The translations under genes and the position numbers were made by a program. Shown piece after piece: positions 3,857 through 9,989 of a stretch of DNA of 64,000 nucleotides; the first letter of the stretch is position 1, and each line of letters opens with the position of its first letter. Source of the DNA: Pyrodictiaceae archaeon (GTDB lineage: Archaea > Thermoproteota > Thermoprotei_A > Sulfolobales > WANQ01); contig WANQ01000011.1 of NCBI GenBank assembly GCA_015521735.1, positions 46,231-110,230 on the forward strand, in the 5' to 3' direction. A model generated the notes under the pieces. It did no database searches. It was given only the letters and a program-made list of their open reading frames with translations, and was not told where the DNA came from.

Positions 3857-3889
3857 GTAGTAGGTATGTAACATTTATATACCTACTAC
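3857..3889. promoter_or_regulatory. 33-bp inverted repeat spanning a TATA-like element
   Basis: GTAGTAGGTAT-11 nt-ATACCTACTAC, perfect 11-bp arms; TTTATATA at the spacer/right-arm junction; 32 bp upstream of the GTG start at 3922. Confidence 0.7.
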
Positions 3890-3921
3890 TGTAATCACTT
3901 ACACAGACAGAGAGTGGGAGC

Positions 3922-5697
3922 GTGAACCCACACAAAGCACCGCGTCAGTCGGAAACCCTTATGGTACTCGAATACTACCGACGATTAGGATTGTATCCAT
4001 TAAAGTTAGAGGAAATACAACTACATACAGGATTAAATCCTGATAGAACTCGTAGGCTTCTTAAGGATCTAGAAAAGAAAGGTTTAGTTATAATCAAAAA
4101 TAACGATACAGTAGAACTCACAGTAAAGGGTATAAGAAGTGCAAATGAAGTATTTATTAGAGTCTTTGGCAGAACAATAGCTAAAGACGATTTAAATAAA
4201 CCGGTTGATGAGCTATTAAAAGAATTCAGAAAACGTCTAATACTTAGATCTAACAAACCAGTAAGATCTCTCGATTCATGGTTAAACATACCTAATATTA
4301 TTACTACATTTAAACCAACTAGCCTGAGTGTCAGTGAAGCAATAATAAGAATGTTTAGTAGCGAAGGAAAACTACTAATAGGTGACTCGTGGGCCCTAGG
4401 GGCAGATCTAGAACATGCTGTCGTACGTCTTGAGAGGCAAGAGGCGGGCGTCTACGCGCACTACGCTAAGGATTTATCATGGGTTATAAGAAACCACCGG
4501 CTCCTCGCAGTAACATTACCACTATGGTATACTGGAAAACCAGTAAGCTATAACGCACTACGGGAGGCAATAGGTGCTAGCTGGTATTGGCCCAACTTGA
4601 AGAGAACCTCTAAGGATCTAGGATTCTACATAGATGAGGCGGCAAGTCACAACCTATTACTTAAACAATCATTAGGCTATGAGATAATATTAACACCAGT
4701 AGATACTGGTGTAGTGAAGCTTATAGAGAAAATATTAAACGTGCTGGAAAGCCCAACAATGTACATAGCACAACGCTGGCCTACGAGAGTACTAGAAGCA
4801 GCAGTGTATAGTTGCATAATAAGAAATCTAGTATCATTGGATGAATTACTCAATAATCCACCAGGAAATAGTACCCTTGCAGAAATATATAGCTACATGA
4901 GTCCTCAAGACTATAGGAGGTACGTGGAAAGAGCTGTTAAAACACTCAGGGAGATAGGCATAGTCGAAGAAATAAATGGATACCTAATCCCTACACGTGT
5001 ACTACGATACGAGCCAGCACTAAAAGATGTATTAAGAAAATATGAAGAAAACATAGTACTACAATTACTTAGAGCCCTTGTAGCAATAAGACCTTATCCA
5101 ACAATAGACGATATAGCTAGGACTATGAAGGTAAACAAGTACTCTCTGCAAAACACCTTACGTATGCTTCATGAGCGCGGAATAATAATAATGACCGTAA
5201 ATGGGGTTCTCACTCCATATCACGTAGCATATTACACTATGGATCCTCTCCCAAGAGACCAGAAGAAGAACTATGGAAATGAAGCGTTGATAAGAGTATC
5301 ATCACCGATACTCGCATTATACTTTTCAGAGATAAAGAAAACTATAAGTGAAGGCGATTGGGAAACCATAGTCAACTTGCTCGAGGAACTAGCTAAGAAC
5401 CGTAGAGTAGATGTAAATGATCTTCCATCACGCATAGTACTAAAACTGTCAAGACTATTTAACTTAATGGAGGACTTCAAGATAGTAAGAATACATGATA
5501 GCGAAATAGAATTGAATGATGATAAATCCCTTAACAATATCCTATTAGTCTTAAGGGACATACCCATAAGGGAATACGTGGACATCGCAAAAAACATTGA
5601 GAAATACCAAGTAAGGCGAAAGATAAACGAAGAAATATCAACGCTCAAGCAATTAATAGTTGAAAGTTACAAGAGGGGAGTACGGCCTCAAGCCTAG
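3922..5697 (+). CDS. multi-winged-helix protein, unknown function
   Basis: 591 aa; wHTH-like segments at the N-terminus (LEEIQLHTGLNPDRTRRLLKDLEKKGLVII) and around residue 395 (IDDIARTMKVNKYSLQNTLRMLHERGII). Confidence 0.7.
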   Translation: MNPHKAPRQSETLMVLEYYRRLGLYPLKLEEIQLHTGLNPDRTRRLLKDLEKKGLVIIKNNDTVELTVKGIRSANEVFIRVFGRTIAKDDLNKPVDELLKEFRKRLILRSNKPVRSLDSWLNIPNIITTFKPTSLSVSEAIIRMFSSEGKLLIGDSWALGADLEHAVVRLERQEAGVYAHYAKDLSWVIRNHRLLAVTLPLWYTGKPVSYNALREAIGASWYWPNLKRTSKDLGFYIDEAASHNLLLKQSLGYEIILTPVDTGVVKLIEKILNVLESPTMYIAQRWPTRVLEAAVYSCIIRNLVSLDELLNNPPGNSTLAEIYSYMSPQDYRRYVERAVKTLREIGIVEEINGYLIPTRVLRYEPALKDVLRKYEENIVLQLLRALVAIRPYPTIDDIARTMKVNKYSLQNTLRMLHERGIIIMTVNGVLTPYHVAYYTMDPLPRDQKKNYGNEALIRVSSPILALYFSEIKKTISEGDWETIVNLLEELAKNRRVDVNDLPSRIVLKLSRLFNLMEDFKIVRIHDSEIELNDDKSLNNILLVLRDIPIREYVDIAKNIEKYQVRRKINEEISTLKQLIVESYKRGVRPQA

Positions 5698-5719
5698 GAG
5701 ACCTTGGAGGTGGCTAGTA

Positions 5720-6493
5720 ATGTCGAATAACATACTCTTCGCATTCATCGACGAAAGCGGTCAACCATATCAGTTAGATGAAGGACCTTATGTTTTAGCG
5801 GCTGCAACAGTAGCCCCATATAATCTTGTTAGAGTTGAGGGCAACATACGTAGCTACCTAACTCGGTGGAGTCATAGACTTGGCAGGGATATACCAGAGA
5901 TACATGCTAGAGAGATTATTCAAGGAGAATCACCTCCGCCTAGAACTCTTCAGCAGAATCCTAGAAGGATAAACTGGAGAAGAGTAGATCCAAGAATAAG
6001 GCAAGAAGTTATAGATAGGTTCTCAGAGCTAATAGCTTCTCAACCTATTCTTCTAAACATAGTGGTTGTTGAAAAACGTCCTGGTGTAAGAATTCATTCA
6101 CAGTATGGTGTGAGAACACGAGCTTTAACGTATCTAATTGAGAGAGTACTTATGTCTGGAAGGACTCCCAGGATCCTATTATTATCTATTGATAGTGCTG
6201 CATTACGCCAAGATACACAGCTTCAAATAGAGGTATTGAACGCATTAAGTAGAGTTAGAGTAAAACATCAAGCCAGGGTTTTCATAAGCTTTGAGGACTC
6301 CGAGAACAGCCCCATAATCCAAATAGCTGATGTCGTAGCCTATATTATAAGGAATGTAAGGATGCACCGATACACCATAGGCAGAATAAATATTGAGAAC
6401 GCTTTTCTCAATATTGAGCGTCGTATAAGAAGATGTCCTGGCACCAACAGGTATGAAAGATGTGGACTAAAAGTGTGGACAATAACACAATGA
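5720..6493 (+). CDS. DUF3800 domain protein (RNase H-like fold family)
   Basis: N-terminal FAFIDESG, HAREI, and C-terminal IQIADVVAYIIRN match the DUF3800 pattern. ATG at 5720 follows GGAGG; the ORF track start at 5660 is probably too long. Confidence 0.75.
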   Translation: MSNNILFAFIDESGQPYQLDEGPYVLAAATVAPYNLVRVEGNIRSYLTRWSHRLGRDIPEIHAREIIQGESPPPRTLQQNPRRINWRRVDPRIRQEVIDRFSELIASQPILLNIVVVEKRPGVRIHSQYGVRTRALTYLIERVLMSGRTPRILLLSIDSAALRQDTQLQIEVLNALSRVRVKHQARVFISFEDSENSPIIQIADVVAYIIRNVRMHRYTIGRINIENAFLNIERRIRRCPGTNRYERCGLKVWTITQ

Positions 6494-6508
6494 TGTACAA
6501 ACATGAAA

Positions 6509-6586
6509 CCCTCGGAGTCCGCCCCCAGAAGGGGGCTACCTCCGAGGGCGCCTCGGGTCCGCCCCTCTAGGGGGCTACCCCGAGGC
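6509..6586. repeat. two tandem GC-rich stem-loops with the same internal-loop motif (candidate structured RNA)
   Basis: 6509-6548: CCCTCGGAG-TCC-GCCCCC-AGAA-GGGGGC-TAC-CTCCGAGGG. 6550-6586: GCCTCGGG-TCC-GCCCCT-CTA-GGGGGC-TAC-CCCGAGGC. Confidence 0.85.
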
Positions 6587-6919
6587 TTAAGGACAGTGTT
6601 TCCCGTATATAATATGGAGACTCAGGTATTTAAGTGCTGTGCGCACAGCTGTGATAACATTCAATTGTACAGTACAGTTTTATTTCTTTCATAGTGTTTC
6701 ATGATTCCATATAAAACACTTAGGTATAATGTAGACCTCCATATCATTTAACATATGCTTCAAAGAGCCCAAGTGCAAGAGAGCGGCTTAGAAACTATAT
6801 CAAACACCTTGTGAAGAATGCGCCAAAGAATTACAAGACACCAAAGAAGCTTTGGTTCAAGTCAACAAGAGTTATAGCAGGACCTGAATCCTTCTTTAAA
6901 AGAACATCATAGCCTTAGA

Positions 6920-8458: not shown

Positions 8459-9745
8459 TCACGGTGTTTTCGTGTTTTCCAGCTGTTTTTCTAGTGTTTT
8501 AAGGTATTTGGGGTAGGCTTCGTCGGCTTCTCCTAGTAGGTCTTCGTATCTTGCTTCGCTTACGCGTAGTTCTCCGAGCCTTGACTGTATGAATCTTGCC
8601 ACTTCTCTGCTCACGGCTTTGATCATTAGCCTCCAGGCCGTCTTCCTCATGTATTTGGGTAGTACTAAGCCGTGCCTCTTAGCGTACTTTGTTACCTGGT
8701 TACGGTTAATGTGCCGTGGCGCTGTTTTCTCAATAAGCTCTAGTGTTTCGTTTGAGAAGTATATCCATTCGCAGGGCTTACTACCCTCCCTCAAACCCAT
8801 GTAGTATCTGCAGAACCCTTGGTCCTCGAAGCATACCAGCCTCCTGGTAACTATGCCTACTCCTGGTATCTCAACAACCTCGTTCGGGCTCCAGGTCTCC
8901 GCCATCTTTAAAACATGTTCGAACCTGGCACCTGACTCCAGCATAACCCTGTATATCGTGTAGTAGATACTGTGTCTCTGCTCTAGGAACTCTAGTGTCT
9001 TCTTAACATCCTCTAAGCTTATCTGGTAGGGCCTAACATCCAACCTATAACTTCTGCTGGGCACGACCTCCATTATCCAGCCAAAGGTCTCTGGGCTGAT
9101 TCTACGCTTGTAGTATAGGTACTGGATGTAGTGTCTGAAGATGTTTCTTAGCCACTTGTTGGGGTGATTCACCACGTAGTCTATGAGCTCCTCGCTAAGC
9201 TCCTTGCCTTCGAGGTATTTCTTGAATAGTGATTTATAGTACTTTAGTGTCTCGGGGCCTCTTACTTTTCTACGCTTCTTACGCTCTCGTAGAAATATCT
9301 CGAAGTCCTGGGTCCACTTCATCTTTACTCCGGTGAGGCTGATCCCGAGTATTCTGCGTAGGTCTTCCCTGAAGTTCTCGACCGTGAACCTGAGTATTAG
9401 TTGTCTGAGGTAGGGGTCTCGTGCTGCTACTCCCAGTATTTCCAGTACTATCGCATAGTCTATTGCACCGTTATTGTCTAGTACTCCCAGCGCTCTGAGC
9501 TTCTCCTCGGTGCCTGCTATCTTCTCGAACTCTTCTGGCTCTAGGGCCTCGAGTATCCTCTTGAGATTATCATCTGTTAGCCTTACCTGTCTTTTAAGCA
9601 GTCTATAGAGCGTCGAGGATGAGACACCTAGTATTTTCCTGGCTTCTTTCTCCCCGCGCGTTGATACGAGGTACCTGAGTAGCCTGTACCGTAGCTCATC
9701 TCCTATCCTAGAGGGATCGATGGCCTCATACCACTTCTTCAGCAC
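8459..9745 (-). CDS. archaeal SSV-type tyrosine recombinase/integrase
   Basis: 428 aa; N-terminal HTH (ARKILGVSSSTLYRLLKR), SGARFEHVLKM (Arg), RKTAWRLM, C-terminal SEARYEDLLGEADEAYPKYL (Tyr candidate). Adjacent to a tRNA 3' end. Confidence 0.85.
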   Translation of the reverse strand: MLKKWYEAIDPSRIGDELRYRLLRYLVSTRGEKEARKILGVSSSTLYRLLKRQVRLTDDNLKRILEALEPEEFEKIAGTEEKLRALGVLDNNGAIDYAIVLEILGVAARDPYLRQLILRFTVENFREDLRRILGISLTGVKMKWTQDFEIFLRERKKRRKVRGPETLKYYKSLFKKYLEGKELSEELIDYVVNHPNKWLRNIFRHYIQYLYYKRRISPETFGWIMEVVPSRSYRLDVRPYQISLEDVKKTLEFLEQRHSIYYTIYRVMLESGARFEHVLKMAETWSPNEVVEIPGVGIVTRRLVCFEDQGFCRYYMGLREGSKPCEWIYFSNETLELIEKTAPRHINRNQVTKYAKRHGLVLPKYMRKTAWRLMIKAVSREVARFIQSRLGELRVSEARYEDLLGEADEAYPKYLKTLEKQLENTKTP

Positions 9746-9914
9746 TGGCCACCCCTCTCGTGGAGAACAGTGTTATAAAACGTGTAATCACTTGAATAGA
9801 ACAATAACCACGGAACAGTGCATCGCAGACCTGATATACAGGGGTATATTGCATGGAAGCAATATGAACCATGCAATGAGGACTTCAGGACAAGTAGAAG
9901 TCTCAATTGTTTAG

Positions 9915-9989
9915 CGGGCCCGCGGGGATTTGAACCCCGGACCTCCGGCTCCGCAGGCCGGCGTCCTATCCGGGCTAGACGACGGGCCC
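9915..9989 (-). tRNA. tRNA-Arg (anticodon GCG)
   Basis: Full cloverleaf on the minus strand: GGGCCCG/CGGGCCC acceptor, CCGGC-CTGCGGA-GCCGG anticodon arm, CGGGG-TTCAAAT-CCCCG T arm, G discriminator. Confidence 0.95.

What the first reader, a model, noticed from the sequence alone, without database searches (positions are those of the whole stretch)
3857..6586. Candidate undescribed module: palindromic promoter, multi-wHTH protein, DUF3800 protein, tandem structured hairpins
Four elements are tightly packed in the accessory region next to the integrase: a 33-bp perfect-arm inverted repeat around a TATA-like box, a 591-aa multi-wHTH protein, a DUF3800 protein 22 bp later, and two GC-rich hairpins 15 bp after its stop. 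DUF3800 (FIDESG...IQIADVVAY) has an RNase H-like fold and is often found in phage and defence loci. The layout could be a protein-RNA defence or addiction system in which the RNA is substrate, guide or antitoxin. The layout is seen directly; the function is inference.
Basis: partly seen in the sequence, partly recalled or inferred. Interest (0 to 1): 0.78.

Follow-up and report, generated by a model that had tools for sequence, protein, structure and literature searches.

The report
Archaeal nuclease gene with hairpin RNA
On a piece of mobile DNA in a heat-loving archaeon, a nuclease-like gene is paired with a small double-hairpin RNA that is probably made from the opposite DNA strand, and the same pairing recurs across archaea and bacteria, so it looks like a self-contained protein-RNA unit, perhaps a toxin with an RNA antidote, whose function has not been tested.

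Summary
The layout is confirmed. The conserved unit is smaller than proposed: the DUF3800 gene plus the double hairpin. The wHTH protein and its palindromic promoter are a separate, probably autoregulated gene, rarely found and not kept beside DUF3800.

All ten fully assayed DUF3800 loci of the archaeal class, the window included, carry two GC-rich hairpins just downstream. Four Vulcanisaeta-type contigs carry them upstream instead. Distant archaeal and bacterial DUF3800 genes mostly have downstream structure too (p=3e-7 against other gene ends, GC-corrected, deduplicated). The window's hairpins occur nowhere else in the genome.

G-U pairs, folding energy, TATA-box positions and the strand of Rfam's DUF3800-IX matches all indicate that the RNA is transcribed from the strand opposite DUF3800, from its own promoter. 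Paired stem changes (16 compensatory, none breaking) show that the fold is selected.

The protein is predicted with high confidence to have an RNase H2-like fold. The pair sits on a 51.8-kb tRNA-integrated conjugative-type element; four related loci adjoin homologous secretion genes.

DUF3800-associated RNAs are already known (Rfam), so this is a new archaeal variant. Best guess: a nuclease restrained by its RNA (type III-like toxin-antitoxin or defence), untested.

The parts
3857..3889 (.). Inverted repeat around a TATA-like box; probable operator/promoter of the wHTH gene (not part of the conserved DUF3800-RNA unit)
   Evidence: unique in 110 kb; the only full-length homolog of the wHTH protein also has a palindrome between its TATA box and its start (L018:7231-7260)
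3922..5697 (+). 591-aa multi-wHTH protein, probable autoregulator; not conserved next to DUF3800
   Evidence: HTH_36, MarR_2, DnaD_N; one full-length homolog elsewhere, not beside DUF3800
5720..6493 (+). DUF3800 protein, 257 aa, RNase H2-like predicted nuclease; ATG preceded by GGAGGTG
   Evidence: PF12686 E=1.4e-11; AF2 pLDDT 93.3, pTM 0.91; best solved matches RNase H2/HII, E 1.5e-4
6509..6548 (-). Hairpin b (3' hairpin of the minus-strand RNA), 9-bp outer stem, GUA/GGA internal loop, 6-bp inner stem
   Evidence: covariation with L047/L048 hairpins
6550..6586 (-). Hairpin a (5' hairpin of the minus-strand RNA), same internal loop
6509..6605 (-). Proposed ncRNA gene, transcribed towards the DUF3800 3' end; both ends inferred
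   Evidence: strand tests; Rfam DUF3800-IX lies in the same place and strand at L066 and L072
6627..6634 (-). Candidate TATA box (CTTAAATA) for the minus-strand RNA, 48 nt before hairpin a; inferred, further away than in most homologs
   Evidence: this locus does not itself show the 29-44 nt spacing of the group
8459..9745 (-). Tyrosine integrase of the mobile element (context)
   Evidence: PF16795 E=9e-25; phrog_5127
9903..9959 (-). 57-bp repeat (3' part of tRNA-Arg) shared with C11:4403-4459: element end (context)

Best explanation
The unit is a two-gene protein-RNA module carried by an integrated conjugative-type element. One gene encodes a DUF3800 protein with an RNase H2-like nuclease fold. 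The other is a short RNA of two tandem hairpins, encoded on the opposite strand beside the DUF3800 gene, with its own promoter, usually converging on the end of the DUF3800 gene. Shown by computation: the pairing, the conserved RNA fold, the strand preference and the predicted protein fold. Inferred: the RNA binds the nuclease, through its conserved loops, and holds it inactive, as in a type III toxin-antitoxin pair. Loss of the element, or a virus or plasmid that disturbs the host, would deplete the RNA and free the nuclease to cut RNA, stabilising the element or blocking the invader. In this element the nuclease gene also lies in an apparent operon behind an autoregulated wHTH gene.
For: Association: double hairpins downstream in all seven first-found homologs and in distant archaea and bacteria. 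Structure of 36 DUF3800 gene ends against 128 control ends in the same loci, p=6e-11; deduplicated and GC-corrected p=3e-7. Apparent exceptions in the Vulcanisaeta clade carry the element upstream. No scattered copies of the window's hairpins. RNA under selection: 16 compensatory, 13 one-sided and 0 breaking changes in ten locus pairs; 6 of 13 pairs with double changes, 0 of 500 shuffles. Strand: G-U pairs 57 against 13, antisense folds better in 23 of 27 against 65 of 128 controls, TATA enrichment 29-44 nt before the RNA, p=0.0016, Rfam DUF3800-IX on the opposite strand at the same place. Nuclease fold. Mobile context. Precedent: the AbiF toxin is neutralised by a neighbouring RNA with two motif copies (PMC12373285). 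No conserved third gene.
Against: No expression, toxicity, binding or cleavage data. The RNA could be cofactor, substrate or regulator rather than inhibitor. The TATA window was set after seeing sequences, and the window's own TATA candidate does not show the group spacing. A minority of loci fold better on the sense strand (6 of 31; 4 of 27). The statistics treat related loci as independent within clades. Some divergent or partial DUF3800 genes (L035-L037, L040, L042, L056, L065) show no downstream structure.
Confidence: 0.45

Rival explanations
1. The RNA is a working cofactor or guide of the nuclease: the DUF3800 protein is active as a ribonucleoprotein and uses the hairpin RNA to recognise a target.
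For: DUF3800 is described as an RNase H-fold nuclease accessory to RNA-guided CRISPR systems V-A2 and VI-F (PMC10910872, PMC12669027), and another protein-associated RNA, RAGATH-18, proved to be a guide (PMC11061315 abstract). Loops are conserved within each RNA.
Against: No variable guide-like segment is evident; the two hairpins account for nearly all of the conserved region.
Confidence: 0.22
2. The hairpins regulate the DUF3800 gene only: a cis structure or antisense RNA controls the 3' end, stability or translation of the mRNA, possibly by autogenous cleavage.
For: Immediate 3' position in most loci; a convergent RNA would be complementary to the mRNA 3' end.
Against: In the Vulcanisaeta clade the element is upstream, so overlap with the mRNA 3' end is not needed; structure and loops, not mere complementarity, are conserved.
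Confidence: 0.2
3. The hairpins are ordinary transcription terminators or mRNA-stabilising stems with no special tie to DUF3800.
For: GC-rich stems just after a stop codon are the usual place for such elements.
Against: Only 11-12% of control gene ends in the same loci have comparable structure, against 64-69% for DUF3800; conserved internal and terminal loops, antisense strand preference and upstream placement in Vulcanisaeta.
Confidence: 0.06
4. One reading: wHTH protein, DUF3800 protein, palindrome and hairpins work together.
For: Tight packing and a probable operon in this window.
Against: No other DUF3800 locus examined has the wHTH gene; its one full-length homolog lies elsewhere in its genome.
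Confidence: 0.04

Closest known systems
Rfam DUF3800-associated RNA motifs (e.g. RF02969 DUF3800-I, RF02968 DUF3800-IX)
   Same: Structured RNA immediately next to a DUF3800 gene; DUF3800-IX matches at L066 and L072 lie 1-5 nt after the stop on the opposite strand, the arrangement proposed here.
   Different: No Rfam DUF3800 model matches the window or any archaeal locus scanned; the archaeal RNAs have their own two-hairpin forms. Names I and IX are from PMC11701678; the full range I-XI and the 2017 survey that defined them are recalled, as that paper is not held.
AbiF/RCd22 (C. difficile prophage) protein-RNA system
   Same: Mobile-element-borne toxic protein with a neighbouring RNA of two repeated motifs that neutralises it (PMC12373285).
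   Different: AbiF is Cas13-related, not RNase H2-like; RCd22 lies upstream on the same strand and is partly co-transcribed with abiF.
Type III toxin-antitoxin systems (ToxIN, CptIN)
   Same: Ribonuclease beside a structured, repeated RNA; used here as the model of mechanism.
   Different: Different toxin fold; in type III the RNA repeats lie upstream in the same orientation (general knowledge); inhibition not shown here.
Ribonuclease HII / H2
   Same: Best solved-structure matches (3puf, 1eke; E 1.5e-4); DESG motif resembles the DEAG of RNase HII (from memory).
   Different: TM-score at most 0.50 and 11-12% identity; gene context and RNA partner differ.
CRISPR-associated DUF3800 (V-A2, VI-F) and a retron-type DUF3800
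   Same: DUF3800 domain recurring with RNA-based systems (PMC10910872, PMC12669027). PADLOC holds a model called DUF3800_VII; its link to type VII retrons is recalled, not checked.
   Different: No CRISPR, Cas or reverse transcriptase gene was seen near this locus.

Membership tests
Pfam DUF3800 (PF12686) | Score above Pfam gathering cut-off | tested here: met
   45.8 bits against 21, residues 7-212
Pfam DUF3800 (PF12686) | Conserved acidic residues of an RNase H-like active site | tested here: met
   D11, E12, Q201, D204 invariant in 15 sequences; D158 is D or E in nearly all
Rfam DUF3800-associated RNAs | Structured RNA adjacent to a DUF3800 gene | tested here: met
Rfam DUF3800-associated RNAs | Match to one of the curated covariance models | tested here: not met
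   No DUF3800 family at or below E=10 on 5700-6750; none at gathering score on other archaeal loci
Type III toxin-antitoxin | Ribonuclease toxin neutralised by direct RNA binding | not testable with these tools
   needs binding and toxicity assays
Type III toxin-antitoxin | RNA repeats upstream of and co-oriented with the toxin gene | tested here: not met
   Elements are downstream, and antisense by the strand tests; in Vulcanisaeta upstream and apparently divergent
Four-part wHTH-DUF3800-RNA module | wHTH and DUF3800 genes co-occur | tested here: not met
RNase H2/HII fold | Overall fold similarity | tested here: inconclusive
   Foldseek E 1.5e-4, probability 1.00 but query TM-score 0.44-0.47
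Known anti-phage defence system | Match to a PADLOC model with system partners | tested here: inconclusive
   Weak candidate-level hit PDC-S51, E 5e-4; PDC-M04A, E 9e-10, for a clostridial relative; no conserved partner

The most novel reading that the evidence does not exclude
DUF3800 genes in both archaea and bacteria form one large, ancient class of RNA-controlled RNase H2-like nucleases, each encoded head-on against its own small hairpin RNA with a separate promoter: a toxin-antitoxin or defence type unlike type III in fold, orientation and RNA, here carried by conjugative elements of hyperthermophiles.
Probability: 0.35. Interest if true: 0.82.

Novelty: new variant of a known kind. Interest (0 to 1): 0.6.

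Why it matters
DUF3800-associated RNAs have been catalogued without a function in any paper I could read. These results extend the pairing to hyperthermophilic archaea, give the likely strand and promoter of the RNA, show that the pair has no fixed third gene, and point to an RNase H2-like nuclease. Together these make a direct test possible: does the RNA silence the nuclease?

Tried and rejected
Single-sequence AF2 of the 591-aa protein gave pLDDT 39 and was not used. Searches of viral contigs and phage records with DUF3800 found nothing; later viral-contig scans got no answer from the server. A first hairpin alignment used the wrong strand and coordinates for L047 and L048 (A6) and was replaced by A7. 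The weak Rfam match PyrR201 on the minus strand (24.5 bits against a cut-off of 49) was rejected as a composition effect. By-eye TATA boxes were replaced by a scored test with permutation. No sequence match of DUF3800 to a solved structure. The DNA-element reading (transposon ends, replication hairpins) was rejected because G-U pairing is strand-biased.

Full report
OBSERVATION. All four elements are present where described. The inverted repeat at 3857-3889 has 15-bp arms with one mismatch and is the only one of its kind in the 110-kb contig. The 591-aa ORF has HTH-type matches near both residues 26-73 and 380-430. The DUF3800 match is strong. The double hairpin is the most stable fold of the contig, with the tRNA second, and its core motif is found nowhere else in the genome.

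WHAT BELONGS TOGETHER. The 591-aa protein was sought in 199 relatives and, as a two-sequence profile, in 400 genomes of the phylum. One full-length homolog was found (G028, 24% identity over 452 residues by BLASTP), far from that genome's DUF3800 gene. A comparison of the window's and element's ORFs with all ORFs of the fetched loci found no wHTH relative beside any DUF3800 gene. That lone homolog also has a palindrome between its TATA box and its start (L018:7231-7260), so the palindrome probably belongs to the wHTH gene as its own operator. The wHTH gene is therefore not part of the module.

THE HAIRPINS GO WITH DUF3800. All seven first-found DUF3800 homologs, the window included, have tandem GC-rich hairpins just after the stop codon. 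Adding L026/L051, L047 and L055 makes ten of ten assayed loci of the archaeal class; L029 of the same order has a weaker, more distant fold. More distant DUF3800 genes, in other Thermoproteota families, Asgard archaea, Psychrobacter and Clostridia, mostly show structure there too. Against 128 other gene ends in the same loci the difference is p=6e-11; after removing near-duplicates and correcting for GC it is p=3e-7. The Vulcanisaeta clade (L025, L027, L049, L050), which lacks a downstream element, has a strong hairpin element upstream of the gene instead. Divergent or partial members without downstream structure are L035-L037, L040, L042, L056 and L065. A covariance model of the window's hairpins finds only DUF3800-adjacent copies in 149 genomes.

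WHICH STRAND. In 25 of 31 regions the strand opposite DUF3800 folds better, with 114 G-U pairs against 48. Deduplicated it is 23 of 27, against 65 of 128 control ends. In ten alignable locus pairs the antisense strand shows 57 G-U pairs against 13. Archaeal TATA-like boxes are enriched 29-44 nt before the first antisense hairpin (permutation p=0.0016); the range was set after looking at the sequences, although it agrees with the usual archaeal spacing. Rfam's DUF3800-IX matches in L066 and L072 lie 1-5 nt after the DUF3800 stop on the opposite strand. In the window the nearest good TATA box (6627-6634, minus strand) is 48 nt before hairpin a, so its start site is uncertain.

RNA STRUCTURE. Read on the minus strand, the RNA is a hairpin a followed by a usually longer hairpin b with an internal loop. 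The window's two hairpins and hairpin b of L047/L048 share a GUA/GGA internal loop while their stems differ: 6 of 13 pairs have double changes and all cells are paired. Ten locus pairs give 16 compensatory, 13 one-sided and 0 breaking changes; the consensus folding used to choose the pairs disfavours breaks. Several other loci share GGU...GCC loops.

THE PROTEIN. AlphaFold2 with 15 sequences gives pLDDT 93.3 and pTM 0.91. The best solved matches are RNase H2 and RNase HII (E about 1.5e-4, query TM below 0.5). D11, E12 and D204 are invariant. This agrees with the published statement that DUF3800 is an RNase H-fold nuclease linked to putative ncRNAs (PMC10910872). Activity is not shown.

SETTING. 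A 57-bp repeat of the tRNA-Arg 3' part at C11:4403-4459 and window 9903-9959 bounds a 51.8-kb element with an integrase. It carries VirB4/TraG-like, type II/IV secretion and HerA-type ATPases. Homologs of its secretion and pilus genes adjoin the DUF3800-RNA pair in L013/L046, L014/L048, L047 and L055. Bacterial and Asgard copies sit between unrelated housekeeping genes, so the pair seems self-sufficient.

MECHANISM. Most likely (0.45) the RNA inhibits the nuclease, as RCd22 does for AbiF (PMC12373285) and as in type III toxin-antitoxin systems. Rivals are an RNA cofactor (0.22), cis or antisense control of the gene (0.20) and ordinary terminators (0.06). The pairing, RNA fold, strand preference and predicted protein fold are computed results; inhibition, toxicity and defence are inference.

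NOVELTY. RNAs beside DUF3800 genes are an established Rfam group (PMC11701678). The archaeal forms match none of the models. New here, to my knowledge, are the archaeal two-hairpin variants, the evidence for an opposite-strand promoter, the upstream relocation in Vulcanisaeta, and the carriage by conjugative-type elements. The original 2017 survey could not be read, so some of this may already be in it.

Noticed in passing
C11:4403 to window ~9959: 51.8-kb tRNA-Arg-integrated element with conjugation/pilus-type ATPases, pilin-like genes, a resolvase fragment and an integrase.
   Followed up: partly
C11 ~13372 and ~44621 (window about -32859 and -1609): A ~52-bp GTAGTAGTGGTAGTAG... sequence occurs twice in the element, once inside an ORF with a Ser/Thr-rich linker and once between ORFs.
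   Followed up: no
C11:16980-17603 (-) and C11:24925-25380 (+): Two element ORFs begin with AIDSS / AVDYS-like strands that might be RNase H-like; no significant Pfam match.
   Followed up: partly
L018:7231-7260: Perfect 14-bp-arm palindrome between TATA box and start of the only full-length homolog of the 591-aa wHTH protein.
   Followed up: partly
L050:6001-6733: Vulcanisaeta JCM 14467 DUF3800 reads as frameshifted in the assembly while the upstream hairpin element is intact.
   Followed up: no
L045:1731-1870: A DUF3800 fragment followed by three rather than two hairpins.
   Followed up: no
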